Part shown: piece by piece, positions 3,422 through 61,036 of the stretch
Numbering within the stretch: position 1 is the first letter of the stretch
Layout of the letters: each line of letters starts with the position of its first letter
Notes under the pieces: generated by a model
Seen by the model: only the letters and a program-made list of their open reading frames with translations
The model's database searches: none
What the model was told of the DNA's origin: nothing
Made by a program: the position numbers and the translations under genes
Assembly (NCBI RefSeq): GCF_900105025.1
Contig: NZ_LT629759.1
Span: 1,798,001 to 1,862,000 of the forward strand
Length of the DNA stretch: 64,000 nt
Origin: Parafannyhessea umbonata
GTDB taxonomy: Bacteria > Actinomycetota > Coriobacteriia > Coriobacteriales > Atopobiaceae
Direction: 5' to 3'

Positions 3422-4039
3422 CTACTCCCCCAGCAGGGCCGCCACCTGCGACACGGGCCGCAGCGGACGGGCGTTTGCGGGGTGGCCGCCCACGATCTTC
3501 TCCATCCACACCATGTCATACCAGCGACCAAACTTGTAGCCACAGCCGTGGAAGCGACCGACCCACTCAAAGCCCAGGTGGGTGTGGAACTCCACGCTCG
3601 CGCGCGTGAGGTAGGGATCGTCCGGCGCGGCGGGGTAGCCTATGCACGCGTTGAGGTTCGTGACGCCCATAGCCGCAAGCAGGCGTTCGAGCGTGGCGTA
3701 CAGCGCGCCGCCCACGCCGCGGCCGTGCGCGTCCTGCGCCACATAGATGGAAAGCTCGCAGGCCCAATCATACGCCTTGCGCTCCTTGAGCGGCCCGGCG
3801 TACGCGTAGCCCAGCGCACGGCCGTCCGTGGACTCCGCCACAAGGTAGGGGTAGCGCTCGAGCGTGTGCGCGATGCGTTGGCGGAAGTCTTCCACGCTGG
3901 GGACGTCCCACTCGAAGGTTATGGCCGTGTCGCGCACGTACGGCACGTAGATCGCAAGCAGGGCCGCGGCATCATCCGGCGTCGCCATCCTGATGCGCGG
4001 ACCCTCCCCCGCCGCCGTGCCAGCCTCTTGTTGCACCAT
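3422..4039 (-). CDS. GNAT-family N-acetyltransferase, phosphinothricin-acetyltransferase-like
   Basis: Predicted acetyl-CoA-dependent N-acetyltransferase. The 205-residue protein has the GNAT core: RDTAITFEWDVPS near residue 36, the acetyl-CoA loop around QDAHGRGVGGALY (about 103-115) and the YKFGRWYDMVWMEK end typical of the Pat/MddA subgroup, which acetylates amino acid analogues such as methionine sulfone or phosphinothricin. The physiological substrate is unknown. It follows the HAD gene's promoter side with an 87-base gap and no clear operon partner. Confidence 0.85.
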   Translation of the reverse strand: MVQQEAGTAAGEGPRIRMATPDDAAALLAIYVPYVRDTAITFEWDVPSVEDFRQRIAHTLERYPYLVAESTDGRALGYAYAGPLKERKAYDWACELSIYVAQDAHGRGVGGALYATLERLLAAMGVTNLNACIGYPAAPDDPYLTRASVEFHTHLGFEWVGRFHGCGYKFGRWYDMVWMEKIVGGHPANARPLRPVSQVAALLGE

Positions 4040-4650
4040 GATCCTCCCCGTCGCTTGTGCTCACGAGCACCAGACTACTACGGGTGGATGCTCGGCGGGC
4101 GCGGGCACGCAACCTTTCACATACGGGATGATGGGCAGGCGTATCAGGAGGTTTTCGCCTGCGAGCAATACTTTTCTCCCATTGTTCTGCCCTTGCTCCA
4201 AAAGCTCCCTGTGCGCGTTCTGGCACGCCATCGGGCTTTCGGTCATCGTTGCTCAAGCTTGTTCATATGTGACCGATTACATTAATACTTGTTATATAAT
4301 TATCGATTCATATTCATTATTTAAAAGTACTAATAATCAAATCCATACTCCAAGTACAACGCTCCTAGGGCGATGTGAAACACGGAGTCCCTACGATGGT
4401 GTTTGCGAAAATATCTGCCGGAGAAGGGCTCTGGCGACAACGCAAGTGGGACCCTCAGGAACCTTTCCCCGAAGGGCAGACGTATGGAATCGACCGCTGC
4501 TGAAGAGGCCGGGGGTCGCCTATACTAATCTGAACCTTAAGCTGCGCAAACCTTGGACTGGAAGAACCCTGAGGGGGGTCTCCCACTCTTAGAAGCTGCG
4601 CTTGCTCTGAGGATCCGTCTACTAAAAATACTGGATTTCGAGGAAGAAGA
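4040..4650. other. Gene-poor 611-bp stretch at the left edge of the BRCT island
   Basis: The first 300 bases are unremarkable, then 4257-4342 is strikingly AT-rich compared with the high-GC surroundings. The left direct repeat (4343-4369) follows. The remaining 280 bases before the BRCT gene have no convincing coding frame but contain several G/C-rich complementary runs, so a structured leader or small RNA is possible. No tRNA is recognisable. Confidence 0.4.
4343..4369. repeat. Left direct repeat bounding the BRCT island
   Basis: A 27-bp sequence starting CCATACTCCAAGTACAACGC matches 7626-7652 with three differences; the shared core is CAACGCTCCTA. The two copies are in the same orientation and flank the low-GC two-gene block, as expected for an insertion with attachment-type or target duplications. 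No integrase is present. Confidence 0.6.
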
Positions 4651-5661
4651 ATGAACGGTCGCTACGAATTTGAGGGAAACGAACTTGCCGGGAGGAGCAT
4701 AGCCTTTGGCAAGAAGCTGAGCACAATGGACACGGCCGAGGGACTTAAGGTTGTTGAACTGTGTGGTGGCACACCACAGAAGAGCGTCACCAAGTCAACT
4801 GAGGTCCTTGTCGTCAGCAACGACGTCATGGCGTCTGTGAATGGAAGTCATGAGGTTCCCATCTACGTTAAAGATGCTCTTGGTTCTGGCATCAATGTCA
4901 TCAGTGAAGACGAGTTTTGGCACTTGATTGGCATGAGAGCCGGAGATGGTGGGGTTGCCGACAGGTGGATCATCGTGGACGACGAGCTCGCCGGCGGAAA
5001 AGTCGATGTCAGCAATGAACCGGGATGGGACGGCCACAAAGCCCCGTATAAGCTGTTCATCCAGCACACGACCATCAAGTCAACCACCGACGGCGGCTGG
5101 AACATTATCGATTGTGGTCCGCTCGATGAGCGTGGGTTTCCCAAATTTGGCTCGCAGCCTTGGTACTCAAGGCCAGATAAAAAGGACATGGGCCGCGTTC
5201 CAGCGACGGACGATGAGCTCGACTATAGGGATCTCATAGGCAAGGTCGTCATAGCAGACGCCTATGCGCCCGAATCGTGTGCATATCTGTTTGATGGCCT
5301 CCAATACTGTGCTGAGTTCGATCTGCAGAAGCTCGACTCGTCAAAGGCAACTTCGATGGCAAACATGTTTAGAGGATGCTCTTCCATCAAGACTCTGCTT
5401 GACATCGGGTCCCTCGACACGTCGAACATGACGAGCATGAGCGGGATGTTCTTCGGCTGTATGTCACTACGAGTCATTGACATGCTCAAATGGGATATGA
5501 ATTCCCTGAGGTGTGCAACATCGATGTTTTCAAATTCCCCTGCGTTTGCACTGGTAAATGACAAAGCAGTCCAAAGGCTCCAATCAAGCGAGGTCGATGC
5601 TAGCAACATGTTTGATTCGGGAACTATGTACGGAACATGGCTTAAGTCATCCGCGATATAG
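4651..5661 (+). CDS. BRCT-domain protein with C-terminal BspA-type (DUF285) repeats
   Basis: Function unknown. Residues about 10-95 read as a BRCT domain (LAGRSIAFGKKL, then VVELCGGTPQKSVTKSTEVLVVS and INVISEDEFWHLIG), of the phosphopeptide- or DNA-end-binding fold found in NAD-dependent ligases. A middle region (100-225) contains WNIIDCGPLDERGFPKFGSQPWY and is unrecognised. Residues about 228-275 carry DUF285/BspA-like leucine-rich repeat signatures (MANMFRGCSSIKTL; LDTSNMTSMSGMFFGC), usually seen in surface proteins, yet there is no signal peptide. It sits nine bases before a BRCT helicase gene and is probably co-transcribed. Codon use is less GC-biased than neighbours, consistent with transfer. 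Confidence 0.75.
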   Translation: MNGRYEFEGNELAGRSIAFGKKLSTMDTAEGLKVVELCGGTPQKSVTKSTEVLVVSNDVMASVNGSHEVPIYVKDALGSGINVISEDEFWHLIGMRAGDGGVADRWIIVDDELAGGKVDVSNEPGWDGHKAPYKLFIQHTTIKSTTDGGWNIIDCGPLDERGFPKFGSQPWYSRPDKKDMGRVPATDDELDYRDLIGKVVIADAYAPESCAYLFDGLQYCAEFDLQKLDSSKATSMANMFRGCSSIKTLLDIGSLDTSNMTSMSGMFFGCMSLRVIDMLKWDMNSLRCATSMFSNSPAFALVNDKAVQRLQSSEVDASNMFDSGTMYGTWLKSSAI

Positions 5662-5670
5662 GGGGCAAAG

Positions 5671-7602
5671 ATGCAATTCGGAAAGACAAGCGAAAAGACA
5701 AGACGCGTCGGTAAATTGATAAAAGAAGTCACTGCGCTGGGTCAGCATCAAAAGGCCGACATAGACGATGTGAGAGGACTTCTCGAGTTAATAGAGACGG
5801 AATACTCTGACGTACAAGATGACGTGTTTGTAAGCTCGCTTGTCGCCGTATTAAGGGATATCGATAAAGACGGGAGGGTCGATAGTGTGGAAAGAAATCT
5901 ACTCCTGTCCTTTGAGAAGACACTCGACGAACCTATATCTAACGAGCCAATTACGGAGGTATCGGGCCAAAACTTCGTTCTCACGGGAGACTTCGACATA
6001 CAAGGTGGTAAGCAAACTATCGAGGAAATGATCTCCGCGGCTGGCGGCGTCGTAAAAAGTAGCACGTCGAAAAAGGTCCAGTACGTCGTACGTGGCAACA
6101 AGGGTAGTGAGGCCTGGTCATTCGGAAACTTTGGAACGAAGATTGAGAAAGCTCTGACTCTTAATCTAACCGGCAAAGCACAAATAAAGATTGTTTCGGA
6201 GAACGCGCTGCTTGCCTATTTCAAGCGGAACAGCCAAGACGCAATGGACGTTCTGCATAACCAAAAAGCAAGGTTCGACGCTCAATGGAATTCTGCCAAA
6301 GTGGTCTCGAATACTTTTACCGGGCTCACCAATGGCCAACAAAAAGTGTTCGACCTAGTAAAGAGCGGACATAACGTATACCTGACAGGACTTGGCGGAA
6401 CGGGAAAGTCTTATGTGCTAAATAAAATAATCGAGTGGGCGGATAAAACAGGCAAGAACGTGATTGTTTGCGCACCAACCGGGATAGCTGCTCTGAACAT
6501 CGGAGGCTCGACAATACACAGGGCGCTAGACATAAGCCCAAATAAAACGCTTCAGATGGACCCATCTCCGGCAATCAAGGACGGCTCGCCGATACCCGAG
6601 TGCGACCTGATGATTATCGATGAAATCTCAATGTGCAGAATGGACCTGTTCGACTACCTCTCTGAAGTTCTTTTCATGGCTGCCCGAATGAGGAAGAAAG
6701 AGGGAAAACCCTGCTGCCAGCTCGTCGTTGTCGGAGACTTCTGCCAACTTCCGCCAGTTGTACAAAAAAGCGAGCGCCCGATACTTGAGCAAAAATATGG
6801 ATTTGATGTTGGTGGCGCATACGCGTTTATGGGCAATTATTGGAACAGGTGGTCCTTTGAAGCTGTTGAGCTTACTGAGGCGATAAGACAAAGGGATTCA
6901 AGCTTTGTTGCCGCGCTCAATGCCTGTAGGGTTGGAGACACAAGAGGGGTGCACTGGATTTCAGAGCACTCTTCGAAACGCCCGATAGAGAACGCAATAG
7001 TACTCTGTGGCCGCAACTCAAAAGCAGATAGCGAAAACAACAAGCGGCTTAGAATGATAGATGCTCCGTTTACCACGTACGTCGGCGAAAAGACCGGAGA
7101 AGTTGAAGAGAGGGATATACCAACGCCAGAACATCTGACGCTTAAGCCAGGTGCTCGCGTCATGTCACTAATTAACGACCGCGAGGACACGTATATGAAT
7201 GGAACCCTCGGAACAGTTATTGAGTGCGAAAAAGACGGCGTTACGGTTGCGTTCGATGGAGGACAAACTAAGTTCGTGCCTTTGTATTCATGGAACATAA
7301 CAAAGCCGACAATGGTCGACGGAAAGACGAGAAGCAAACCGATCGGTACATACAAACAGGTACCTCTAAAGCTTGCCTGGGCAATAACAATCCATAAGTC
7401 GCAAGGCCAAACTTTCGATTCGGCAACAGTGTTTCCAGAGTGTTGGGACTATGGACAGTTGTATACGGCTTTGTCACGCCTCACGAGAGTCGAGAATCTA
7501 TACATCGCAGAACCAGTTAACGATAGCTTTTTAAAGACATCGCCAGACGTTATTAAATTCCTAGAAGGCCACTATGAGGGACATCTGCACGGAGAGTCAT
7601 AG
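5671..7602 (+). CDS. EF-hand/BRCT/Pif1-type SF1 helicase
   Basis: Predicted ATP-dependent 5'-3' DNA helicase of the Pif1/RecD2/Dda class. Residues 63-74 fit a canonical EF-hand loop (Asp63, Asp65, Asp67, Asp71, Glu74). Residues about 97-187 form a BRCT domain (VSGQNFVLTGDFDIQGGK). The motor follows: Walker A GLGGTGKSY (240-248), Walker B IIDEIS (315-320), motif III GDFCQLPPV (355-363), and the C-terminal IHKSQG (574-579) and TALSRLTR (599-606). The start follows AGGGGGCAAAG. The BRCT and EF-hand attachments are unusual for this class. It forms a two-gene unit with the BRCT-DUF285 gene inside a repeat-flanked island; a genome-defence or repair role is only a guess. Confidence 0.88.
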   Translation: MQFGKTSEKTRRVGKLIKEVTALGQHQKADIDDVRGLLELIETEYSDVQDDVFVSSLVAVLRDIDKDGRVDSVERNLLLSFEKTLDEPISNEPITEVSGQNFVLTGDFDIQGGKQTIEEMISAAGGVVKSSTSKKVQYVVRGNKGSEAWSFGNFGTKIEKALTLNLTGKAQIKIVSENALLAYFKRNSQDAMDVLHNQKARFDAQWNSAKVVSNTFTGLTNGQQKVFDLVKSGHNVYLTGLGGTGKSYVLNKIIEWADKTGKNVIVCAPTGIAALNIGGSTIHRALDISPNKTLQMDPSPAIKDGSPIPECDLMIIDEISMCRMDLFDYLSEVLFMAARMRKKEGKPCCQLVVVGDFCQLPPVVQKSERPILEQKYGFDVGGAYAFMGNYWNRWSFEAVELTEAIRQRDSSFVAALNACRVGDTRGVHWISEHSSKRPIENAIVLCGRNSKADSENNKRLRMIDAPFTTYVGEKTGEVEERDIPTPEHLTLKPGARVMSLINDREDTYMNGTLGTVIECEKDGVTVAFDGGQTKFVPLYSWNITKPTMVDGKTRSKPIGTYKQVPLKLAWAITIHKSQGQTFDSATVFPECWDYGQLYTALSRLTRVENLYIAEPVNDSFLKTSPDVIKFLEGHYEGHLHGES

Positions 7603-7625
7603 GGAGCGATCATTACCCATCTAAC

Positions 7626-7652
7626 CCATACTCTAAGTGCAACGCTCCTAAG
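7626..7652. repeat. Right direct repeat bounding the BRCT island
   Basis: This 27-bp copy, starting CCATACTCTAAGTGCAACGC, matches the left copy at 4343-4369 with three differences. It lies between the helicase stop codon and the 3' end of the membrane-protein gene at 7662. Confidence 0.6.
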
Positions 7653-7661
7653 ACTGGAGAA

Positions 7662-8234
7662 TCACGCGACGGCAGGCAAGCAGCCCGCGATGACCACGCT
7701 CGCCACGCCGATGAGCGCGAGCGGGATGCAGCCATCTACAAAGGACGGCAGCGCACCCAGCCGGTAATACAGCACGTAGCACACAAGGCTCACGGCAAAG
7801 CCCACCACGGCGAGAAGGGCCACCAGCGTGGCTGCACCCGCCTGCCCGGCACGGCCCAGTGCCAGCGCGCAGAGCGCCTCCATCCCCAGCCACGCCACAA
7901 AGAGCACGAGCTCCGTGGTGGGCTGACGCCCAAAGACGCGCTGCGTCACCGCAAGAAGCACCAGGTACAGAGCCACGGAGCCAACCGTGCAGCCAAGCGC
8001 AGCGCCGCCTGGGGCAAGCGTCGCCGCTCCCCCGCAGGCGCGCGTGGCGCCCCACACGCCGCAGACGACGGCACCCAGGATCGACACGACGCCCACAACG
8101 CGCAGCGGGCCCTGCGCCTCGCCCCCGCCAACCTTGGGCCAGAAAAATATCGCCCACCATGCAAGGTACAGCGCACAACACGCGGCCATCAGCCAATGGC
8201 CCTGTCTCATCTGCTCAAACGCGACGCCACCCAT
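7662..8234 (-). CDS. Small multi-pass membrane protein of unknown function
   Basis: A 190-residue protein with about five to six hydrophobic segments, starting MGGVAFEQMRQGHWLMAACC. I do not recognise a family. The start at 8234 follows GGGAGGCTGGCC. A second copy of exactly the same length exists at 12602-15710 but is split by an IS21 element; the two share most residues, including RQPTTELVLFVAWLGMEA and VSLVCYVLYYRLGAL. The coding region is conserved along its full length, which argues for a real membrane protein family present in several copies in this genome. Confidence 0.7.
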   Translation of the reverse strand: MGGVAFEQMRQGHWLMAACCALYLAWWAIFFWPKVGGGEAQGPLRVVGVVSILGAVVCGVWGATRACGGAATLAPGGAALGCTVGSVALYLVLLAVTQRVFGRQPTTELVLFVAWLGMEALCALALGRAGQAGAATLVALLAVVGFAVSLVCYVLYYRLGALPSFVDGCIPLALIGVASVVIAGCLPAVA

Positions 8235-8329
8235 GGCCAGCCTCCCTTGCGGCGCCGTCCCGTGGCGGCACCCGCAAGCCCCATGATAGCAACGTCGCAC
8301 GGGAAGCCCGGGCGCTGCAGCGTCACGCC

Positions 8330-12601: not shown

Positions 12602-12949
12602 TCACCCCACGACGGCGATGCAGCCCGCGACGACGGCGCTCACCACGCCGATGAGCACCAGCGGCACGCACCCGTCCACGAACGAGGCCAGCGCGCCCAG
12701 CCGGTAGTACAGCACGTAGCACACTAGGCTCACGGCAAAGCCCGCCACGGCGAGAAGAGCCACCAGCGTGGCCGCGCCCGCCTCTCCGGCGCACCCCAGC
12801 GCCAGCGCGCAGAACGCCTCCATGCCGAGCCATGCCACGAAGAGCACGAGCTCCGTGGTGGGCTGCCGCTGGAACGCGCGCTGCGTCACCGCAAGCAGCA
12901 CAAAGTAGAGAGCCGCGGACCCCAGCGCAAACCCCCAGGGCGCCCAGGC
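12602..12949 (-). pseudogene. 3' part of a membrane-protein gene split by an IS21 element
   Basis: This segment encodes the C-terminal two thirds of a paralogue of the 7662-8234 protein (VTQRAFQRQPTTELVLF onward). Its 5' part is at 15479-15710 beyond the insertion. Joining the two while counting the 7-bp target duplication CCCAGGC once restores one frame of 573 bases, exactly the length of the intact paralogue. The interruption is therefore clean and probably recent. Confidence 0.9.
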
Positions 12950-13134: not shown

Positions 13135-14598
13135 ATGACCGTGCCCCTTGACACAAGACAGGCTATCAGGGAACTGGACGCCGGTGGTGCGTCCAGGTCG
13201 CAGATAGCGCGCGAGCTCCATGTGAGCCGCAACACCGTCCGCAAGTACGCGGACATGGAGGACATGTCGCCGGCCGCGCCCGTGAGCGCGAGGCCGCACC
13301 CCGCGATCGACGCCGACGCCGCGTGGGTGGACTCCGTCCTGGAGGCCGACCTCGGCGCGCCCAGGAAGCAGCGCCACACGGCGAAGAGGATCTACGACAG
13401 GCTGGTGGAGGAGCGCGGCTACGCGGGCTCCTACTCGACCGTGTGCCGATACGTGGGCGAGTGGAGGCGCGGGCACTCGCGCTCCCCGCGCGAGGGCTAC
13501 CTCGAGCTCGCCTGGGAGCCCGGCACCGCGCAGGTCGACTACGGGTCGTTCCGCGCGGTCGTCGCGGGCGTCCCGCGCACCCTCAGGCTCCTCGTCGTGA
13601 CGCTGCCCCACTCGAACGCCCGCTTCTGCGTGGCAATGGAGCTCGAGAGGTCCGAGTGCCTCTGCTGGGGCCTGCGCCTCGTCTTCGAGTGGGCCGGGCG
13701 GGCCCCGCGCGTCCTCGTGCTCGACAACGCCACGGAGGCCGGGCGCATGCTCCGCGGCATCGTCACCGAGTCCGAGCTGTTCTCGCACTTCAGGGCCCAC
13801 TACCGCTGCGAGGTCCGCTTCTGCAACCCGCACTCCGGCAACGAGAAGGGCTCCGTCGAGAACGCCGTGGGGTTCCTCCGCCGGAACCTGCTCGTCCCCG
13901 TGCCCGAGGCCGCCTCGGTCGACGAGCTCAACGAGGGGCTCAGGGCCGGCTGCGAGCGGATCAACGCCGGCGCGAGGAACAGGGCCGGGGCGCCCACGCC
14001 GGAGGCGCTCCGCGAGGACCTCGCCGGGATGCTGGCCCTGCCGGGCGCGCCCTTCGACGCGGTCAGGTGGACGCACGCGCGCGCCGACAAGCGCGGCTAC
14101 GTGCGCGTGGACGGCAACCTCTACTGCGTCGGGCCCGCCTGGCACGACCGCGAGCTCGTGGTGGGCGTGCGCGCCAGGTCGGTCGAGGTCCTCGCCGACC
14201 GGGGCAGGCGCGTCGCCACGCTCGCGCGCAGCTTCGGTGAGGGCGAGACCGTGAGGAACCCGGCGTCGCTGATCCCGGCGCTGGTGGCGAGGCCGAGGGC
14301 CTTCGGGGAGTCGACCATCAGGCGCGACATGCCCGGGGCGCTCGTGGGAGAGCTCGACCGCTGCGACAAGGCCGGGAGGAGGAAGGCCCTCAGGGCGATA
14401 GGGAGGGCGTCCGAGCACTCCGGCTTCGGCGCCGCCTGCGAGGCGGCCGCGAGGATCTTCGCGGGCGGCAGGGTCCCGGACGACGCGTCCTGCGACGCGC
14501 TCGCGAGGCGCGTGGCCGCGGGCGGCCCCGAGCCGGGGCAGGCCGACCTCGCCGTCTACGACGGCTTCCTCGGGGAGGCGGCGCGGGATGCAGAGTAG
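13135..14598 (+). CDS. istA: IS21-family transposase IstA
   Basis: DDE transposase of the IS21 family, 487 residues. An N-terminal helix-turn-helix (SRSQIARELHVSRNTVRKY, about 20-38) would bind the element ends. The catalytic triad is visible as Asp135 (AQVDYG), Asp197 (VLVLDNA) and Glu242 (GSVENAVGFLRR). The C-terminus has the Mu-type beta-barrel region (GYVRVDGNLYCVG). It overlaps istB by 11 bases, the usual coupling in this family. Confidence 0.95.
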   Translation: MTVPLDTRQAIRELDAGGASRSQIARELHVSRNTVRKYADMEDMSPAAPVSARPHPAIDADAAWVDSVLEADLGAPRKQRHTAKRIYDRLVEERGYAGSYSTVCRYVGEWRRGHSRSPREGYLELAWEPGTAQVDYGSFRAVVAGVPRTLRLLVVTLPHSNARFCVAMELERSECLCWGLRLVFEWAGRAPRVLVLDNATEAGRMLRGIVTESELFSHFRAHYRCEVRFCNPHSGNEKGSVENAVGFLRRNLLVPVPEAASVDELNEGLRAGCERINAGARNRAGAPTPEALREDLAGMLALPGAPFDAVRWTHARADKRGYVRVDGNLYCVGPAWHDRELVVGVRARSVEVLADRGRRVATLARSFGEGETVRNPASLIPALVARPRAFGESTIRRDMPGALVGELDRCDKAGRRKALRAIGRASEHSGFGAACEAAARIFAGGRVPDDASCDALARRVAAGGPEPGQADLAVYDGFLGEAARDAE

Positions 14599-15346
14599 CG
14601 CGAGCGTGGCGGACGCGGTCGTGGAGGCCGGCAAGAGGTGCTCGCTCACGAAGTCCGTGCTCGCGGAGTGGGCCAGGAGGGGCACGCCCAGGCAGGTCGA
14701 GTACCTCCTCGGCTACCTCGAGGCCGAGGGCGCGAGCAGGGACGCCTCGAAGAGGGCGCAGCTCCTGAGGAGGTGCGCCCTGCCGCAGGCCAAGACCTTC
14801 GAGGGCTACGACTGGTCGTGCGTGTCCTGGCCGGACGGCTTCGGCAGGGACGACCTGCTCTCGCTGTCGTTCCTGGGCGGCCGCGAGGACCTCGTGCTCA
14901 TGGGCGACGTCGGCACGGGCAAGACCCACATGGCCGAGGCGCTCTGCGTGCTGGCGTGCCAGTCGGCGCGGCCCGCGCGCTTCTTCACCGCCTCCTCGCT
15001 CGTCGGCAGGCTGCGCCGGGCCCGCGACGAGGGCAGGCTCGACCGCGAGCTCGCCCAGGTCGGCCGTGCCGAGCTGCTGGTCGTCGACGAGCTCGGGTTC
15101 CTCCCGCTCGACGTCGACGGGGCCAGGCTGCTCTTCCAGGTGGTCTCGCAGGCCTACGAGACGCAGTCCGTCGTCTTCACGACCAACCTGGAGTTCTCGA
15201 GGTGGGGGTCCGTCTTCGGCGACGACCAGATGGCCGCGGCCGTGATCGACCGCGTCGTCCACCACGGCAGGCTCCTCCAGTTCAGGGGCGAGTCCTACCG
15301 CGTGAGGCACGCGCTGATGTCCCCGGACGGGGGCGGCGCGGAGTAG
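14588..15346 (+). CDS. istB: IS21-family helper ATPase IstB
   Basis: AAA+ ATPase (252 residues) that assists IstA in target capture. Walker A GDVGTGKTH is at residues 106-114, Walker B LLVVDELG at 163-170, and sensor TTNLEFSRWGSVF follows. The ATG at 14588 lies inside the end of istA (ATGCAGAGTAG holds both signals), implying translational coupling. Confidence 0.95.
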   Translation: MQSSASVADAVVEAGKRCSLTKSVLAEWARRGTPRQVEYLLGYLEAEGASRDASKRAQLLRRCALPQAKTFEGYDWSCVSWPDGFGRDDLLSLSFLGGREDLVLMGDVGTGKTHMAEALCVLACQSARPARFFTASSLVGRLRRARDEGRLDRELAQVGRAELLVVDELGFLPLDVDGARLLFQVVSQAYETQSVVFTTNLEFSRWGSVFGDDQMAAAVIDRVVHHGRLLQFRGESYRVRHALMSPDGGGAE

Positions 15347-53821: not shown

Positions 53822-54163
53822 CTAGCCGACCAGCGTAAGCCTACCCTCAAGCACCATCTTGCCACGGCCGCCGTGAGCGCCCTCCTCCGGCCAGGTCAGA
53901 AACGTGGTAACCCTACTGTTCCCGAAGTCCGCAACCTGGGACGCAACGACTCCGGCCTCCTCAATCCAGTTGACCATGTACACGTCCTCGCCCAGTGCGA
54001 CCGCATCATATGGGTCGACCTCACTTGAAGGCTCGCCCTCCCCCACCACGGAAAGCGCGTTCCACCTAAGCTCGCTCTCGCTTAGGTAGTCACTCACGTA
54101 GTGGTCGCCGCTCTCGTAGTCGACGTCCACGCGCTTGCCCCGCACCTTCTCGAAAACCGTCAT
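53822..54163 (-). CDS. Small MoaF-like beta-barrel protein
   Basis: A 113-residue protein beginning MTVFEKVRGKRVDVDYESG. The order of DYESGDHYVSDYLSESELRW, VYMVNWIEEAGVVASQVADF and TFLTWPEE resembles the small lipocalin-like MoaF/phenolic-acid-decarboxylase group. No catalytic residues are assigned and the role is unknown. The start at 54163 follows GGAGGCCGAC; an ATG at 54208 would add 15 residues. Confidence 0.5.
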   Translation of the reverse strand: MTVFEKVRGKRVDVDYESGDHYVSDYLSESELRWNALSVVGEGEPSSEVDPYDAVALGEDVYMVNWIEEAGVVASQVADFGNSRVTTFLTWPEEGAHGGRGKMVLEGRLTLVG

Positions 54164-54604
54164 GTCGGCCTCCATCCTGCGAGTCCAGCTATTTACCGTG
54201 GTACGCATTCGATACTTATTTCTGCTTCTCGACTAAATTGACCTTACGGGATGCAGGTCTTACGCACAATTAGGATCATTCTGGTTACCTGGTCGCTTCT
54301 GGGTGACTGCAGCTGCATTCCGCACGGCACAACAATGCCCGCAACGTAGAACTATATTTTTTAGTTCTACGTTGCAGGCACGTTTTCCCAGTTGGCGCAA
54401 ACCGCGCGAATTATAGTTCTACGTTACGCGGCAGGGGGGCGCCCCCTCGGTAGCGTGGCGCTTTGCGCTCCAGACGGAGTCACCACTCATGTCGTCTTAG
54501 GCGTTTCCCAACAATACCGTGCTCTCGAGGGACCTGAGTCGAAGACTGTCAAAGTGACGAACCCCGCCCATAGAAGCTAGGTGCCGCATGCACCCAGACA
54601 AATA
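54164..54604. other. Intergenic stretch holding palindromic element copy 3
   Basis: No credible gene. The palindromic element occupies 54336-54432. The sequence on both sides is of mixed composition, less GC-rich than the average for the window, and may include other decayed insertions. Confidence 0.4.
54336..54432 (+). repeat. Palindromic dispersed element, copy 3
   Basis: AACGTAGAACTATA and TAGTTCTACGTT arms enclose an AT loop, with an outer TGCCCGC/GCAGGCA pair. CGTTTTCCCAGTTGG and TTATAGTTCTACGTT follow. It is nearly identical to copy 4, and similarity extends about 25 bases upstream (GCATTCC, then ACAACAATGCCC). Confidence 0.9.
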
Positions 54605-55366
54605 CTATTTAACCAGTGACATTTCGAGATAATAGAGGTTGGAGCGATAGCGCCACACTCCAAACTCACGCGGAATTCCACGCTCGTCAAATGATACACG
54701 CGTAATCTCGAGAAGGGGGAATCCCTTCTCGACGTGGAGCACGCGCGCGGTTTCCTCGTCCGCCCCCACCGATTTCATCACCTGCGTTGCACGGGGCCAC
54801 GTTACATGCAAGACGTTCTTGTAGTAAGCACGAAGTGACTCATTAGAAAAGTCTCTTTCTGTAGCGCCAGGGACATAATTCGCCTCTAGTAAGATCGTCT
54901 CACGATAGTACGGCGTCTCTCCCTTACAGCGAACGCGGTCAAGTCGAAAAAGTGGCGTATCTAACGGAAGATTGAGCGCTCCGGAAGCTTTTGGATCCGC
55001 AAGCACTACCCCCGCGTCGAGGACCCTCTTCTCTACTTTCCCAACGCCAATACTTGGGTCATCGCTAAGACGCAAGCTTGAGTTCGTCCAGTTCAGTGCC
55101 GTTTTTGGCCTAGTAGCCACTACGACTGAGCCCACGCCGCGGCGCCTCTCTACCAAGCCGTCATCGACGAGCATCCCCATCGCCTTACGCGCGGTCTCAC
55201 GACTGATGCCGAACTCCTCTACCAGGCGCGTTTCGGATGGTACAAGATCCCCAACCGAAAATGAACCTCCGGTAATCTCCTGAAACAGGATATCGTACAG
55301 CTGGTAATACAGCTGCTCATGAGAGTTCGGATCGAGTCTCCGTGTTTGTAAAATTGCAATTCCCAT
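54605..55366 (-). CDS. GntR-family (HutC-like) transcriptional regulator
   Basis: A 253-residue regulator. The winged helix is near the N-terminus (PSETRLVEEFGISRETARKAM, with SETRLVEEF near residue 43) and a UTRA ligand-binding domain follows. It probably controls the nearby PTS-aldolase operon. The start at 55366 is used; a GTG at 55423 with a GGAG site would add 19 residues. A palindromic site TGGTATAGAGACCA (55463-55476) lies just upstream and fits HutC-type operators. Confidence 0.85.
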   Translation of the reverse strand: MGIAILQTRRLDPNSHEQLYYQLYDILFQEITGGSFSVGDLVPSETRLVEEFGISRETARKAMGMLVDDGLVERRRGVGSVVVATRPKTALNWTNSSLRLSDDPSIGVGKVEKRVLDAGVVLADPKASGALNLPLDTPLFRLDRVRCKGETPYYRETILLEANYVPGATERDFSNESLRAYYKNVLHVTWPRATQVMKSVGADEETARVLHVEKGFPLLEITRVSFDERGIPREFGVWRYRSNLYYLEMSLVK

Positions 55367-55462
55367 ATGCAGCACAACTCGCTTTTGGCCGAATGATGCA
55401 TGACGAGCATGCAACCGTCGCACTACTCATACTCCAAATCGCATCGAACCCAAGGTTAAATC

Positions 55463-55476
55463 TGGTATAGAGACCA
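55463..55476 (-). promoter_or_regulatory. GntR/HutC-type operator-like palindrome
   Basis: TGGTATAGAGACCA has arms TGGT/ACCA around a TAgA centre and lies about 97-110 bases upstream of the GntR gene's first ATG. It probably serves autoregulation. Confidence 0.5.
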
Positions 55477-55563
55477 ATTTAGGAATACAAATGGCATACA
55501 ACCAGCCAGTGGGCCAACAAGTTATAAAGTACCTGTCTTGCAAAACAACTTTCGAACTACGCG

Positions 55564-56172
55564 TCAGCTCCTCGCAAGCTCATCCACTCTATCGACTATC
55601 GCCTCTTCGTCGACGTCATCAATGTTCGTCGCATCAACTTCAATGAGGTCCCCGAGCACAAATGTCCCGTATCCCTTTGTGACGCAGCGCTCTTCCAAAA
55701 GCTGCCTGGTTACCAGTGCGTCTGCCTTGCTGCGATCAGCAAGCACGTCACCCTTGTGATAGTGATTCATGAGGTGCCCAAGGTGCCTTGATTGAGACAG
55801 GTCTCTAGCCAGTGATCGCTTGTAGATTACATCGAGATCCCCGACAAACCTAACAGTAATGGCCCGATAGCCATACTCCGCAACCAACTTGACCAGCGTG
55901 GGGCGCTGCTTGTCAGAAAACGGATAGTCAGTAACGAATGCCTTCCCGTCGGACATTAGGTGCCGGAGCTCAGAGTAGTACCTTTTCCAAACAAGCTTCT
56001 CGAGCTCATCCTTTTCCTGGAGGGAATCGAACCCGAACTCATCCCAAACCTGTTCTTTAATGTCATCTGGAGCGATTACAGGCAAATCCGGATGCCGTTT
56101 GAGGAGCTCTCCGCAAAATGTTGACTTACCAGTTGCCGGATAGCCCGCGAGAAGCACCATGACTTTCTTCAT
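55564..56172 (-). CDS. P-loop nucleotide kinase-like ATPase
   Basis: A 202-residue protein with Walker A AGYPATGKST (near residues 9-18) and the zeta-toxin/kinase-like layout (IAPDDIKEQVWDEFG, then FVTDYPFSDKQRP). It may phosphorylate a small molecule. It lies 41 bases after a TPR-like gene and downstream of the PTS operon. Family assignment beyond AAA_33-type P-loop kinase is not possible. Confidence 0.8.
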   Translation of the reverse strand: MKKVMVLLAGYPATGKSTFCGELLKRHPDLPVIAPDDIKEQVWDEFGFDSLQEKDELEKLVWKRYYSELRHLMSDGKAFVTDYPFSDKQRPTLVKLVAEYGYRAITVRFVGDLDVIYKRSLARDLSQSRHLGHLMNHYHKGDVLADRSKADALVTRQLLEERCVTKGYGTFVLGDLIEVDATNIDDVDEEAIVDRVDELARS

Positions 56173-56213
56173 GATTGCGCTTTCCTAACCTTTGTCCAAA
56201 ACTCCAACGAACG

Positions 56214-56606
56214 CTACTTGCCGCGAAGCATGTCCTTGGAGTTCTGCATAAGGGACTGGAGCTTGTCCAAATAGAGCTTTGCTCCGTCTTGGTCGCCAGA
56301 CTCAGCTGCGGCCTTACGCTTCCTGTTGTATAGGGTGGTCAGTGACCTATATGGGGCACCCATGCGCCTTCCGTTGGCGACGCAGGCTTCAAACGCCTCA
56401 ATGGCCGCGTCATCCTCTCCGGCATCCATCAAAAGCTTTCCGCGGCGCTCCAGAAGGTCGCACTTCTCGGCCCCATCGACTGAGTCTATTTGCTCCAAAA
56501 GCTCATTCGCCTTACGAAGCAGCTCTTCTCGGTCGACCTTAGCAGACGGCTCGTTATCCTTCTTTTCAGACTTTACCGCCTTATCTTTCTTGTGAAAGAG
56601 GAACAT
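56214..56606 (-). CDS. TPR-like helical protein of unknown function
   Basis: A 130-residue, highly charged protein starting MFLFHKKDKAVKSEKKDNEP. LLRKANELLEQIDSVDGAEK and GKLLMDAGEDDAAIEAFEAC fit tetratricopeptide-type helical hairpins, so a protein-binding role is likely. It sits between the PTS EIIC gene and the P-loop kinase, after a terminator-like hairpin. Confidence 0.65.
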   Translation of the reverse strand: MFLFHKKDKAVKSEKKDNEPSAKVDREELLRKANELLEQIDSVDGAEKCDLLERRGKLLMDAGEDDAAIEAFEACVANGRRMGAPYRSLTTLYNRKRKAAAESGDQDGAKLYLDKLQSLMQNSKDMLRGK

Positions 56607-56638
56607 GTTGCCTCGATTCTCCTAAACCCTGATAGAAA

Positions 56639-56667
56639 GGGGGCTGGCCCATAGAAGACCAGCCCCC
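56639..56667 (-). terminator. Terminator-like hairpin between PTS EIIC and the TPR gene
   Basis: A 9-bp stem GGGGGCTGG/CCAGCCCCC with an 11-base loop lies 14 bases after the EIIC stop, followed on the minus strand by TTTCT. It would reduce read-through into the TPR and kinase genes. Confidence 0.75.
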
Positions 56668-56680
56668 ATCACACAGTTCG

Positions 56681-57988
56681 CTATGCAAAAAGGCCAACGA
56701 GGCACTTGATGCCGTAGAGCACGAAACCAGTGAAGACCGTATCAACGTCGGTGCAAGTCAGGTTGACGAAGCCAATCTGCGCAAGCATGGGGGTGAGAAG
56801 CGCGGGGATGATCATGATGAAGATGCCGTGCACGATGCAGCCGATGATCAGGCCACGACGACCACCCACGGCGTTGCCGAAGATACCCGCAGTACCACCA
56901 GCGAAGAAGTTGGACATAACGCCGGGGATGACAAAGTATCCAGTGACCGGAGAAATGAGCATGCCGATAATCGAGCCGATGGTGGTGAAGATGAAGCCGA
57001 GAATAACGCTGTTAGGAGCGTAGGGGAAGAGAACGGGGCAGTCGAGGGCAGGCTTGGCACCAGGAACGAGCTTCATCGAAATGCCCTGGAAGGCGGGAAC
57101 GATGTTGTCGAGAAGCTGGCGGACGCCCATCATCAGGATGTAAAGGCCGATCACGAAGGTGCAGCACTGCAGGAACGCCTCGACGATGTAGTTAACGCTG
57201 GTCGAGATGCCGAGACCCTTGGCGACCTTGAGGCACGCAGCGGGCCCAGCAATAATCGCCGCAATGATGTAGAAGGGAAGCATGACCGTGAAGACGGCAA
57301 GGTAGGTGTCGTTGAGGAAGTCGAGCTTCTCAGGAATCTTCACGTCCTCGGCAGACTCCTCGGGATTGCCCACGAGCTTGGCAACGCCGGCGGTGACCAT
57401 GTAGCCAATGGTGCAGAAGTGACCGAGCGCGATATCGTCACTGCCAGTAATCTTGCGCACAACAGGCTGTGCAATGGCAGGCATAAACGTCGCGAAGCAG
57501 CCGCCAACAAGCGAAGCGAGGAGAATCAGAGGCACGCCGGTAAGACCGAGGAAGTAAGTGAACACGACCGCAAGGGTGGACTCCCAAAGGAGTGCCTGGC
57601 CGGTCAGGAAGATGTACTTGAACTTCGTGAAGCGGGCAATGATGAGGTTCACGATGAAGATGCCGAGCAGGACGATCGAAATCTCCGAGCCGAGCCCCAG
57701 GTCAGTCATAGCCTGGCCATTGATGCCCTCAATCGAGGCGACAACAGCGCCGCCGCCGGCACCGATGTGGAAGGCGGAGTTGAACACATTGCCGAAGTAC
57801 TGGAGCGAACCCTGAAGAACGCTGGAGCCGGCGGAAAGAATCATGAAGCCAAACAGGGTCTTCATCGTTCCCGCAAACACCTCGTTAGCCGGCTTCTTCT
57901 GAAGCGCAAGACCAAGGAAGGCAATGAGGGCGATGATGATCGATGCCTGGGTCAGAATGTTGCTAACAATCCAATTCAGGACAGCCAT
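56681..57988 (-). CDS. PTS EIIC, ascorbate (UlaA) family
   Basis: A 435-residue membrane permease with about eleven helices, starting MAVLNWIVSNILTQASIIIA. GLALQKKPANEVFAGTMKTLFGF near the start is the EIIC-GAT/UlaA signature. It is translated from an operon with EIIB and EIIA genes. The substrate is a sugar or sugar acid; the UlaA family is not limited to ascorbate. Here the linked PfkB kinase and class II aldolase suggest a product cleaved to trioses. Confidence 0.88.
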   Translation of the reverse strand: MAVLNWIVSNILTQASIIIALIAFLGLALQKKPANEVFAGTMKTLFGFMILSAGSSVLQGSLQYFGNVFNSAFHIGAGGGAVVASIEGINGQAMTDLGLGSEISIVLLGIFIVNLIIARFTKFKYIFLTGQALLWESTLAVVFTYFLGLTGVPLILLASLVGGCFATFMPAIAQPVVRKITGSDDIALGHFCTIGYMVTAGVAKLVGNPEESAEDVKIPEKLDFLNDTYLAVFTVMLPFYIIAAIIAGPAACLKVAKGLGISTSVNYIVEAFLQCCTFVIGLYILMMGVRQLLDNIVPAFQGISMKLVPGAKPALDCPVLFPYAPNSVILGFIFTTIGSIIGMLISPVTGYFVIPGVMSNFFAGGTAGIFGNAVGGRRGLIIGCIVHGIFIMIIPALLTPMLAQIGFVNLTCTDVDTVFTGFVLYGIKCLVGLFA

Positions 57989-58047
57989 TTCATCCTCTTT
58001 CTATTGCTTAAAAAACTAATTTCCTCGAGAAGGACGGGGCACCTCTG

Positions 58048-58344
58048 TTACAGCTCGCCCATTTCCTTAAGGATTGGCGTGAGCTTTTCGGTGATCTCCT
58101 TCTTGTCGACCAAACGATCGAGGAAAACCACCGGCTTAGGAAGATTCTTCTTCTCCATAAGCTTCTGGTAGTTCTTGCCAGACACGACAATATCGGCCTC
58201 GTTTACGATTGCGGAAATCGTAGTCGTGTCGGTATGGCTGACCTTGGCGTTCACGTTGAGAGCCTTCATTGCCTGCTCAATAGCCATCTGGCAGGCGAAG
58301 CTGCTGCCCAGGCCGGCGCCACACACCGCGATGATCTTGACCAT
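58048..58344 (-). CDS. PTS EIIB, ascorbate/lactose-type
   Basis: A 98-residue cytoplasmic EIIB with phosphocysteine Cys8 in VCGAGLGSS. It lies 17 bases after the EIIA gene and 59 before EIIC. Three separate PTS proteins (A, B, C) are the usual layout for the UlaABC type. Confidence 0.9.
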   Translation of the reverse strand: MVKIIAVCGAGLGSSFACQMAIEQAMKALNVNAKVSHTDTTTISAIVNEADIVVSGKNYQKLMEKKNLPKPVVFLDRLVDKKEITEKLTPILKEMGEL

Positions 58345-58361
58345 GTTTACCTCCCCTCTTC

Positions 58362-58871
58362 TTACTCGGATGCGGACAGAACGGATTCTCCTGCTCTGTC
58401 AGTTGCCTCTGACTCGGCTATGAGCAGGTGGTAGATTTCTTCTGGCGTTTCAGACTCTTTCAGACGAGCAACCTTGGACTCGTCCATGCAGAAGGTCGCA
58501 AGAACCTTGATTGCGTCTACGTGAGAGTTCGGGTCTTCTGCCGACAGAGCAAACAGCAACGTTACGCAGCTGTCCGACCCCTCGAATTGAACGGGCTTCC
58601 TCAGTAACAGAAGTCCCATCTGGGTCTTAATCGCTCCTTCTTCGGGACGTGCGTGGATGAGCGCGATGTCGTCGGTAAGCACGACATAGGGGCCCACGGA
58701 TTCAATGTCTTTCACGACATTGTCCGCATACCTCTGCTCGGCGTAGCCACCCTTAACCAGGGGGTCAAGACTTACCCTTACCCCTTCGCGCCAGTCCTGG
58801 ACGGAGTCGAGTATCTGGATGTTCTCAACCTTGAGCATGTCTTGAAAAGCAAACTTCTGAGAGTCAGCCAT
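58362..58871 (-). CDS. PTS EIIA, mannitol/fructose-type
   Basis: A 169-residue EIIA of the mannitol/fructose fold with active-site His73 in IALIHARPEEG, the phosphohistidine position of UlaC/MtlA domains. It follows the PfkB gene at 41 bases. It supplies phosphate to the adjacent EIIB. Confidence 0.88.
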   Translation of the reverse strand: MADSQKFAFQDMLKVENIQILDSVQDWREGVRVSLDPLVKGGYAEQRYADNVVKDIESVGPYVVLTDDIALIHARPEEGAIKTQMGLLLLRKPVQFEGSDSCVTLLFALSAEDPNSHVDAIKVLATFCMDESKVARLKESETPEEIYHLLIAESEATDRAGESVLSASE

Positions 58872-58912
58872 GTGTTCTTCCTTAACTGAATCGATCCCAC
58901 GCGTGGGGTTCC

Positions 58913-59833
58913 CTATGCAGATTCGGGCAAATCAATTCCGAGAGACTTAAGCGCTCCAAGCACCTCACTAAGTTCAGGAATCGAGCGCTGGCTACCCATG
59001 CGAGTGGTAGAAATGGCGGCAGTCATAGAGCCAAGAGTCAGACAATCGACGAACTCAAGGCCACGCGACAATCCGTAAGTAAAAGCTCCGTGGAAAATGT
59101 CTCCCGCGCCCGTCGAGTCAATCGCCGCCACCTCGAACGCGGGCATACGCACAGCCTTTCCCCCTTCGAGGTACACCAGCCCTTTGGACCCGAGCGTTAT
59201 CGCTACGCGGCAGCCGGGATTGATGCTTTCGATGTCTAGCAGCGCCTCAAGAAGACCCTTGTCGGTATCTGGCAGGACACGGCCCGTATGCTGCTCGGCA
59301 AACGCCTGAGAACAGACGATATAATCGGAAACACGAGCGACCTGAAGTGTCGACTCTCGACACGTACCGGCATCAACCACAACCTTTGCGTCGGGGAAGC
59401 GCCTCTTGTACTCAACAGTCGCTTCAGGTTCATGCCCGTCACAGAGAATGATGTCTGGCGACGCCTCCGGATACACAACTTCAGCTTCAACGTTCTGGGA
59501 CGGGAAGTTGAAAATTGTTCTTGTGCCCGTCTTTCCGTTTGCCACGATGAAGCTAAAAGAGGTCGATACGCCAGGGGCGCGAAGGAGATAGTCAAGATTG
59601 ACTCCGCAGTCTGCAACGGCCTTCTTTATCTGCTCTCCATAGGCGTCTCTTCCGATGCGGGCCACCAAGTAAGGCTTGGCTCCCCACTTTCCGCAAACAC
59701 AGGAGCCATTGAGGGCTGGCGCACCGGGGCATTCAGTATGCTCGGTGAGACGATACTTCCTATCAGGGACAATGTCTTCGTCGACTCGTGCAGTTATGTC
59801 ATAGGCCGCTTGGCCGATACAGAAAATGCGCAT
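58913..59833 (-). CDS. PfkB-family carbohydrate kinase
   Basis: A 306-residue ribokinase-type kinase. The C-terminal signature AIDSTGAGDIFHGAF holds the catalytic Asp and the anion hole, and GAPALNGSCVCGKWGA near residue 37 the substrate glycines. It is second in the operon after the aldolase. It probably makes a bisphosphate that the class II aldolase then splits. Confidence 0.88.
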   Translation of the reverse strand: MRIFCIGQAAYDITARVDEDIVPDRKYRLTEHTECPGAPALNGSCVCGKWGAKPYLVARIGRDAYGEQIKKAVADCGVNLDYLLRAPGVSTSFSFIVANGKTGTRTIFNFPSQNVEAEVVYPEASPDIILCDGHEPEATVEYKRRFPDAKVVVDAGTCRESTLQVARVSDYIVCSQAFAEQHTGRVLPDTDKGLLEALLDIESINPGCRVAITLGSKGLVYLEGGKAVRMPAFEVAAIDSTGAGDIFHGAFTYGLSRGLEFVDCLTLGSMTAAISTTRMGSQRSIPELSEVLGALKSLGIDLPESA

Positions 59834-59866
59834 GCTCCACCACCTCTCTGGCTCCAGATGCGGTCT

Positions 59867-60709: not shown

Positions 60710-60743
60710 GTGTTTGTCTCCCACCTTTCCTTCACACCCATAC

Positions 60744-60767
60744 GGTTATATGGTTGTGTGGTTGTCC
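60744..60767 (-). promoter_or_regulatory. Three 8-bp tandem repeats in the aldolase promoter
   Basis: GGTTATAT, GGTTGTGT and GGTTGTCC follow one another without gaps (60744-60767), 35-58 bases upstream of the aldolase. On the gene strand they read as A/C-rich units. They may be sites for the nearby GntR regulator, although they differ from the palindrome at 55463. Confidence 0.4.
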
Positions 60768-60938
60768 GTACATTTACCTGACAAACACAGCCTATACACA
60801 ACAACGGAGAAATGCAAGGATTTTTCTGGAATGGTTTTGCCTCTTCGGTAAATGCCTAGAGCACTCGCTTCTCATTCCCAAAGTTCGGTCATCCATCCCC
60901 TCGGAGTGAGGCCGAGCCGCATTCCCCGCCACACAACA

Positions 60939-61036
60939 ATGCCCCTAACGTAGAACTATATTTTTTAGTTCTACGTTAGGGGCACGTTTTCCCAGTTGGT
61001 GCAAGCCGCGCGAATTATAGTTCTTCGCTACGCGAC
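60939..61036 (+). repeat. Palindromic dispersed element, copy 4
   Basis: TGCCCCTAACGTAGAACTAT and its complement TAGTTCTACGTTAGGGGCA form a near-perfect hairpin with an AT loop; CGTTTTCCCAGTTGG and TTATAGTTCTTCGCTACG follow. It is almost identical to copy 3. It lies alone between the aldolase promoter and the HAD gene; the rest of 60768-61101 holds no recognisable gene. Confidence 0.9.

What the first reader, a model, noticed from the sequence alone, without database searches (positions are those of the whole stretch)
4343..7652. Repeat-flanked two-gene BRCT island: a candidate undescribed system
Two genes nine bases apart each carry a BRCT domain, one fused to DUF285/BspA repeats and the other to a Pif1-type helicase with an EF-hand. 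They sit in lower-GC DNA bounded by 27-bp direct repeats (three differences), and no integrase or transposase is present. A paired BRCT module could recruit the helicase to the DUF285 partner at DNA ends. Function is inference; defence, repair or plasmid-type mobility are all possible.
Basis: partly seen in the sequence, partly recalled or inferred. Interest (0 to 1): 0.82.

Follow-up and report, generated by a model that had tools for sequence, protein, structure and literature searches.

The report
BRCT helicase cassette beside IS30 remnants
Two adjacent genes, a DNA-unwinding enzyme and a repeat protein, both with BRCT-type domains, look like a shortened copy of a rare gene cassette that moves between gut bacteria, often includes an exonuclease, and may protect against phages or other invading DNA; the repeats around it are decayed insertion-sequence ends, not the edges of a new mobile element.

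Summary
The gene pair is real and intact: BRCT-DUF285 (4651-5661) and, nine bases on, a Pif1-type helicase with a weak BRCT (5671-7602), in 49-54% GC DNA within about 65% GC. The EF-hand is not supported. The 27-bp repeats are left ends of an IS30-family insertion sequence: 4340-4617 is an internally deleted copy, 7619-7650 a lone end. Two same-genus relatives showed no repeat in the parts of this site that could be read, and carry other genes there, including CBASS, GmrSD and restriction-modification genes. The helicase is rare: 4 of 140 family genomes have it, all 4 with a DUF285 partner. Four of six helicase loci also hold a DEDDh exonuclease gene with a BRCT-like tail; the window lacks it, and the IS30 relic lies where that gene stands in two relatives. 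Three loci hold integrases; one helicase adjoins a C5 methyltransferase and an AIPR gene; a related exonuclease-DUF285 pair lies 1.6 kb from Gabija. Best reading: a mobile BRCT-linked helicase/exonuclease cassette with a repeat-protein partner, probably defensive, of which the window holds a shortened copy. Defence rests on context alone; no control count was made and function could not be tested.

The parts
4651..5661 (+). Gene 1: BRCT (residues 11-93, 4681-4929) + conserved middle region + DUF285/PARCEL repeats (residues 210-324, 5278-5622), 336 aa
5671..7602 (+). Gene 2: helical N-terminal part (residues 1-90, TerB-like at best) + weak BRCT (residues 99-181, 5965-6213) + Pif1/Dda-type SF1 helicase core (residues 219-633, 6325-7569), 643 aa, helicase motifs kept
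4340..4617 (+).
   Evidence: aligned to an intact 1099-bp IS30 in L053: IS 4-89 at 68.6% (E 1.5e-5) and IS 901-1097 at 65% (E 1.3e-17); end alignments
7619..7650 (+).
4132..7679 (.). Stretch without alignment to the two same-genus genomes, between the GNAT gene and the membrane-protein gene
3422..4039 (-). Left flank: GNAT acetyltransferase, aligns in G001 and G002
7662..8300 (-). Right flank: membrane-protein-like gene (no Pfam family at E<=0.001), aligns in G001 and G002; a second, closer-matching copy lies at 12602-12901

Best explanation
The pair is one copy of a rare cassette that moves between bacteria: a helicase and (in most complete loci) a DEDDh 3'-5' exonuclease, each with a BRCT-type domain, plus a repeat (LRR-like) protein, usually DUF285 with its own BRCT-type domain. 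Proposed mechanism: the BRCT domains bring the enzymes to the same DNA (nicks, ends or replication intermediates of an invading phage or plasmid) or to each other; the helicase opens the duplex, the exonuclease trims the exposed strand, and the repeat protein acts as sensor or adaptor that decides when or on what they act. Most likely result: defence against phage or other foreign DNA. In the window the exonuclease is missing from the locus; a deleted IS30 copy ends 33 bases upstream of gene 1, the place of the exonuclease gene in G393 and G356, so an IS-linked loss is likely, and an exonuclease gene elsewhere in the genome may or may not stand in. Shown: domains (BRCT weak in several members), association, sequence constraint between two relatives, genomic context, IS30 identity. 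Inferred: defence, sensor role, order of enzyme action, cause of the loss.
For: Association: helicase orthologues in 4 of 140 genomes of the family, all 4 with a gene-1 homologue; a fifth (L079, another family by its record title) has an LRR_5 repeat protein instead; a sixth (L086) starts ~600 bases before the helicase. Exonuclease in the cluster at 4 of 6 (L046, L047, L048, L079). D-E-D-H-D columns of a DEDDh exonuclease invariant in 6 of 6 aligned; RNase_T above cut-off in 6 of 6; PF00533 listed at the C-terminal side of 6 of 6, above cut-off in 1 (L079). Exonuclease + DUF285 without helicase in 2 more genomes, G096 and G151 (neither among the 14 helicase-positive); gene 1's BRCT resembles the tail of those exonucleases (E 1e-4, 0.005 in a 22-protein comparison). 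Constraint: dN/dS 0.07 (exonuclease), 0.13 (DUF285), 0.11-0.15 (helicase) between G393 and G356, with silent sites near saturation for two of the three. Context: same site in relatives holds SMODS cyclase, SLATT effector and GmrSD (G002), HEC-06-type and restriction-modification genes (G001); C5 methyltransferase and AIPR/MzaE gene next to the helicase in L086; GajA (2.9e-151) and GajB (1.2e-80) near the exonuclease + DUF285 pair in G096. Mobility: integrase in L047, L048, L079, relaxase in L047, MobC in L048. IS30.
Against: No experiment. Direct neighbours match known defence genes strongly in only 2 of the loci read (L086, L106); L046 gave weak hits, and the single neighbour scanned in each of L047, L048 and L079 gave none. 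No control count for random loci was made. BRCT in gene 2 of the window and in 5 of 6 exonucleases is below Pfam's cut-off, and Pfam lists no BRCT at E<=10 in the DUF285 proteins of G393 and G356; there it rests on alignment with gene 1. The window lacks the exonuclease. The helicase is frameshifted in G356 and in L086: sequencing error or decay. Both AlphaFold models were poor (mean pLDDT 42). Many DUF285 proteins are surface proteins (PMC2996958, passages).
Confidence: 0.5

Rival explanations
1. The cassette serves the mobile elements that carry it: helicase, exonuclease and adaptor process or repair element DNA during transfer, replication or integration, and it is not an immune system.
For: Three loci hold integrases, one a relaxase, one MobC and one a VapE-type gene. 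Seven Pseudomonas phages encode a relative of gene 2's N-terminal part; in the one whose annotation was read it lies next to a CI-like repressor.
Against: By reading, no integrase or relaxase was seen beside the pair in the window or in G241, nor beside the exonuclease + DUF285 pair in G151 and G096 (no family search of those ORFs). Relatives' sites and two loci are rich in defence genes. Cargo of mobile elements is often defence (general knowledge).
Confidence: 0.25
2. The window's copy is a remnant without function: an IS30 insertion removed the exonuclease and perhaps the promoter, and the two remaining genes persist for now. (Compatible with the best explanation for the cassette as such.)
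For: IS30 relic directly upstream of gene 1; tblastn of six exonucleases on the window finds gene 1's BRCT (E 5.5e-5, 0.029) and otherwise nothing better than E 0.4; no sigma-70-like site on the + strand in 4040-7760.
Against: Both frames are full length without stops and the helicase motifs are kept. A simple promoter scan says little here. The genome has an exonuclease gene of this type elsewhere.
Confidence: 0.35
3. A chromosomal DNA-repair accessory: a Pif1-type helicase and a repeat protein that act at damaged host DNA.
For: Pif1 core and ligase/RFC1-like BRCT fit repair.
Against: Patchy presence: 4 of 140 family genomes; 1 of 266 in a phylum-wide draw, the window genome itself; absent from 2 of 2 same-genus genomes.
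Confidence: 0.1
4. One reading: the 27-bp repeats are the ends of a new mobile unit that carries the two genes.
For: Two similar copies flank the genes; a direct-orientation pair of IS30 copies could once have acted as a composite transposon.
Against: The repeats are IS30 left ends and the right copy has no second end; the one IS30 transposase place found in the genome is broken by stops over its length. No repeat found in the parts of the site read in relatives. Integrases accompany the cassette in 3 of the 5 other helicase loci.
Confidence: 0.04

Closest known systems
Gabija (GajA OLD nuclease + GajB UvrD helicase)
   Same: Nuclease and SF1 helicase as partners encoded side by side; a Gabija pair lies about 1.6 kb from the exonuclease + DUF285 pair in G096.
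   Different: No OLD/TOPRIM nuclease in the cassette; Pif1 not UvrD helicase; BRCT-type domains and a repeat protein instead.
Pif1/Dda-type SF1B helicases
   Same: Helicase core matches solved bacterial Pif1 (8bns, E 1.1e-64) and phage Dda-like helicases (phrog_325, 8.1e-82).
   Different: N-terminal helical part plus BRCT; extra C-terminal tails in relatives (HhH-like by reading in L047, with no Pfam match for its counterpart in G241; HTH-like below cut-off in L079).
DnaQ-like DEDDh exonuclease + BRCT (NCBIfam PRK06195 type)
   Same: Exonuclease plus BRCT-type tail, the partner in relatives; BRCT of genes 1 and 2 match the BRCT part of that model.
   Different: The cassette's exonucleases are clustered with DUF285 and helicase genes, some with an extra ~100-aa region (by reading); absent from the window locus.
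DUF285 / PARCEL repeat proteins
   Same: Gene 1's C-terminal half meets Pfam DUF285.
   Different: Begins with a BRCT domain; many known members are surface proteins, and PMC2996958 (passages) leaves open what members without targeting signals do. No signal-peptide program was run here.
IS30-family insertion sequences
   Same: End sequences and body remnants at 4340-4617.
   Different: About 810 bp of the middle, with most of the transposase, is gone; the right-hand copy is only an end.

Membership tests
Pif1-type SF1 helicase | PIF1 domain above cut-off, Walker A/B and later helicase motifs | tested here: met
   104.7 bits against 25.9; GLGGTGKS, DEIS, GDFCQLPP, HKSQGQT, SR invariant in the three aligned orthologues; motif roles recalled
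BRCT domain, gene 1 | PF00533 above gathering score | tested here: met
   21.4 against 21.3 bits, a bare pass; G241 22.1; not listed at E<=10 in G393 and G356
BRCT domain, gene 2 | PF00533 above gathering score | tested here: inconclusive
   window copy 14.1-15.2 bits against 21.3; 5 of 5 orthologues listed at E<=10, best 6.7e-7; profile matches ligase and RFC1 BRCT
BRCT domain, partner exonucleases in relatives | PF00533 above gathering score | tested here: inconclusive
   listed in 6 of 6 at E<=10 (5.8e-5 to 0.26), above cut-off in 1 of 6 (L079, 23.7 bits)
DEDDh exonuclease (relatives only) | RNase_T fold with D-E-D-H-D | tested here: met
   RNase_T above cut-off in 6 of 6; five residues invariant in 6 of 6; motif recalled
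EF-hand | Conserved D-x-D-x-D-G loop | tested here: not met
   no EF-hand family listed at E<=10; acidic loop positions lost in four orthologues
TerB-like domain | TerB family match | tested here: inconclusive
   TerB in 1 of 5 orthologues at E 0.065, DUF533 in 2 of 5 at best 0.027; four predicted helices at low confidence
DUF285/PARCEL | PF03382 above cut-off | tested here: met
   51.8 against 25 bits
Gabija | GajA OLD nuclease plus GajB UvrD helicase | tested here: not met
   gene 1 no PADLOC match; the 12 families of gene 2 include no GajA or GajB
Any PADLOC-DB 2.0 defence system | Both genes matched by models of one system | tested here: not met
   gene 1: 0 families; gene 2: partial matches within residues 177-603
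IS30 family | Related ends on both sides | tested here: met
   left part (86 bp) and right part (199 bp) align to an intact element with an HTH_38 + rve transposase
IS30 family | Target-site duplication | not tested
   -
Composite transposon | Two complete IS copies around the cargo | tested here: not met
   right copy is a lone end
Antiphage defence system | Protection when expressed | not testable with these tools
   -

The most novel reading that the evidence does not exclude
An undescribed immune system in which a cytosolic leucine-rich-repeat-like protein (DUF285 or LRR_5) recognises an invader and, through BRCT-type domains shared by most parts, hands DNA to a helicase-exonuclease pair: repeat-domain sensing joined to BRCT scaffolding in bacteria, with the repeat class interchangeable between lineages.
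Probability: 0.2. Interest if true: 0.8.

Novelty: new variant of a known kind. Interest (0 to 1): 0.55.

Why it matters
BRCT domains are best known as glue of DNA-damage signalling in eukaryotes and as the tail of bacterial ligase (general knowledge). A mobile bacterial cassette in which helicase, exonuclease and repeat protein carry BRCT-type domains would be a compact natural case of BRCT-based assembly outside repair, and would suggest an intracellular role for some DUF285 proteins. If defence is shown, it adds a helicase-exonuclease type to the known list. It also marks a trap: imperfect direct repeats around low-GC genes were old IS ends.

Tried and rejected
Structured RNA in the 280 bases upstream of gene 1: Rfam gave no match at gathering score in the window and one weak hit at E 2.3 inside gene 1 in 4200-7750; the stretch is an IS30 relic. 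DNA search with that stretch over 386 class genomes gave 16 genomes at E<=0.01, the own genome included; E-values are per genome, so most of the short matches are, by my estimate, chance. The hits that led to IS30 were G244, G297, G098 and a second place in the own genome (read). First genome-contig scan with the single protein: 20 pattern hits, none confirmed; the alignment scan gave 7 loci, 3 orthologues (L078 and L080 are the G393 and G356 loci, L079 is new) and 4 weaker helicase matches. Viral contigs: 0 relatives for gene 1, 1 weak helicase. Plasmids: 147 records match the helicase core, 0 cover 80% of it. Subdoligranulum plasmid hits are, by reading, an ordinary exonuclease-BRCT and a ligase. 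Of 14 genomes with helicase matches at E<=1e-20 in 396, 9 match the core only and 1 the N-terminal part only; they were left out of the orthologue count. Of 8 family genomes with an N-terminal match, 4 are other proteins (exonuclease fusions in three, a short gene near a contig end in one). The AlphaFold models were too poor to search. The low-GC stretch 54-61 kb holds sugar-operon-like genes by reading, no link seen.

Literature: no paper held both DUF285 and BRCT, none BRCT + 'anti-phage defense' + helicase; TerB + BRCT gave 7, of which one passage was read (PMC4012209: WYL domains combine with exoRNase, SF1 helicase, BRCT and TerB domains among others). PMC2996958: passages. The other searches were seen as listings with abstract starts. 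So 'not in print' holds only for these searches of open-licence papers.

Changed on checking: BRCT in the partner exonucleases had been named by reading; one search shows it below cut-off in 5 of 6, and not listed in the DUF285 proteins of G393 and G356.
Full report
What is there. The window (bases 1,798,001-1,862,000 of a 2.35-Mb single-contig genome) holds two same-strand genes, 4651-5661 and 5671-7602, nine bases apart, in DNA of 49-54% GC while the surroundings are about 65%. Gene 1 has a BRCT domain at residues 11-93 (just above Pfam's cut-off) and DUF285 repeats at 210-324. Gene 2 has a Pif1-type helicase core, closest among phage families to Dda-like helicases (phrog_325) and among solved structures to bacterial Pif1. 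Its BRCT is weak in the window copy (14.1 bits, cut-off 21.3), but PF00533 is listed for 5 of 5 orthologues at E<=10, best E 6.7e-7, and their profile matches DNA ligase A and RFC1 BRCT domains in the PDB. The reported EF-hand is not supported: no such family among those listed at E<=10, and in four orthologues only DG and the last E of the loop remain. A TerB-like fold is possible but unproven (TerB E 0.065 in 1 of 5, DUF533 in 2 of 5).

The repeats. The 27-bp repeats are real (three differences; 32 nt at 88%). They are ends of an IS30-family insertion sequence. L053 (G297) carries an intact element of 1099 bp (1446-2544) whose transposase has an HTH_38 domain above cut-off and an rve match at 1.4e-6. 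Its bases 4-89 align to window 4340-4423 (68.6%, E 1.5e-5) and its bases 901-1097 to window 4420-4617 (65%, E 1.3e-17). So 4340-4617 is an IS30 copy that lost about 810 bp of its middle. The downstream repeat at 7619-7650 is a lone left end in the same orientation. The one IS30 transposase place found in the genome has four stops over its length. Two same-genus genomes were compared. The left flank aligns to window 4126 (G002) or 4131 (G001) and the right flank resumes at 7680 in both, so the variable stretch is wider than the repeat interval. A search for the repeat found none in L071-L073 (E<=0.05). Those sites are not empty, and G001's lies on two contigs with an unseen gap, so this does not show the original target. 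One caution: the gene on the right has a second copy in the window at 12602-12901 that matches both relatives better over 344 bp (94-95%, against 82-83%), so exact orthology of the right flank is uncertain.

The site. In G002 the ~13 kb between the flanks hold a SMODS cyclase (PADLOC 5.4e-119), a SLATT 2TM effector (3.2e-50), a GmrSD-type protein (Pfam 8.2e-38) and others; in G001 the contigs that carry the flanks hold a HEC-06-type, a type II methyltransferase and a type IIG-like gene. So the pair sits where relatives keep defence genes.

The cassette. Helicase matches at E<=1e-20 occurred in 14 of 396 genomes of the class; 4 are orthologues along the length (G000, G241, G393, G356, the last in two frames), 9 match the core only and 1 the N-terminal part only. 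In the family, 8 of 140 genomes match the N-terminal profile at E<=1e-8, and 4 are the same orthologues; in a phylum draw only the window genome of 266 matched at E<=1e-20. An alignment scan of named genomes added one in an Eggerthellaceae MAG (L079; L078 and L080 are the G393 and G356 loci), and a phage-collection search one in a human-gut scaffold labelled 'Bacteriophage sp.' (L086). That makes six helicase loci. A gene-1 homologue lies beside the helicase in 4 of 6: directly upstream in the window, G393 and G356, and ~400 bp downstream in G241. In L079 the place is taken by a BspA-type LRR_5 protein; in L086 the scaffold starts too close to say. A DEDDh exonuclease gene is in the cluster in 4 of 6 (L046/G241, L047/G393, L048/G356, L079). 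It is not in the window, where tblastn of six exonucleases finds gene 1's BRCT and otherwise nothing better than E 0.4, and it was not seen in the 7 kb of L086 read. The G000 genome has an exonuclease gene of this type elsewhere (1189111-1189890, E 6.2e-25 and 3.3e-12 for its two halves). Two more genomes (G151, G096) have an exonuclease gene followed at once by a DUF285 protein without BRCT; neither is among the 14 helicase-positive genomes.

How firm the BRCT link is. In the six exonucleases PF00533 is listed in 6 of 6 at the expected place, but above cut-off only in L079 (23.7 bits); in gene-1 homologues it is above cut-off in the window and G241 and not listed at E<=10 in G393 and G356, where it rests on alignment with gene 1. 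Gene 1's BRCT is similar to the tail of the L021 and L020 exonucleases (E 1e-4 and 0.005) and G241's to L021's at 2e-6, in a comparison of 22 proteins only. A C-terminal region of the G393 helicase, HhH-like by reading, is a separate small ORF in G241 (E 1e-16; no Pfam family). Parts are joined and split between lineages, as expected if they act together.

Constraint and mobility. Between G393 and G356 dN/dS is 0.07 for the exonuclease, 0.13 for DUF285 and 0.11-0.15 for the helicase pieces (Nei-Gojobori); dS exceeds 1 for exonuclease and helicase, so those values are rough, and window-to-G241 silent sites are saturated. Integrases accompany L047, L048 and L079, with a relaxase in L047, MobC in L048 and a VapE-type gene in L079. 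Defence neighbours: C5 methyltransferase and AIPR (MzaE, 2e-77) next to the helicase in L086; Gabija GajA and GajB about 1.6 kb from the exonuclease + DUF285 pair in G096; a Schlafen-group-3 helicase with a GIY-YIG match just below cut-off in G241, and, by reading, a similar helicase upstream of a short N-terminal homologue in G195. One neighbour scanned in each of L047, L048 and L079 gave no PADLOC match; the other ORFs there were not scanned, and no control of random loci was made.

Interpretation. The data fit a mobile cassette of nucleic-acid enzymes with BRCT-type domains and a repeat-protein partner, most likely defensive. The step from anatomy to mechanism is inference: BRCT domains place the enzymes on DNA or on each other, helicase and exonuclease process it, the repeat protein tunes or triggers. 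Binding of DNA by the RFC1 and ligase BRCT domains is recalled and not tested here. In the window the IS30 relic ends 33 bases before gene 1, the place of the exonuclease in G393 and G356, so loss of the exonuclease by IS-linked deletion is the simplest story; it cannot be dated or proved from one genome, and the window copy may no longer work. Structure predictions failed, probably for lack of homologues (three sequences each, mean pLDDT 42 for both), and were not used.

Noticed in passing
window 13135-15346: An IS21-type pair: a 487-aa integrase-like ORF followed by a 252-aa ATPase-like ORF on the + strand (named by reading the translations, no family search).
   Followed up: no
window 7662-8300 and 12602-12901: Two copies of a membrane-protein-like gene about 5 kb apart; the second matches the copies of G001 and G002 at 94-95% over 344 bp, the first at 82-83%.
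   Followed up: partly
window 54000-61000: A second low-GC stretch (52-57%) with GntR-like, PTS-IIC-like, sugar-kinase-like and aldolase-like ORFs, by reading an acquired sugar operon.
   Followed up: no
L049 5147-6274, L095 847-2028, L097 484-2028: Exonuclease-like proteins whose own C-terminal part matches the N-terminal profile of gene 2: the module is shared between exonucleases and helicases (exonuclease by reading).
   Followed up: partly
L089 3824-4474 (Pseudomonas phage Marin): A stand-alone BRCT protein related to the N-terminal part of gene 2 lies next to the CI-like repressor gene; six other Pseudomonas phages have a match at the same identity, their surroundings not read.
   Followed up: no
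L076 1418-1440 (own genome, about base 897,900): Another IS30 right-end remnant in the window's genome, between two reductase-like genes by reading.
   Followed up: no
L108 7260-8204 and 8977-11142 (G301): A relative of the L021 exonuclease with an in-frame stop lies next to a Cas9-type gene.
   Followed up: no
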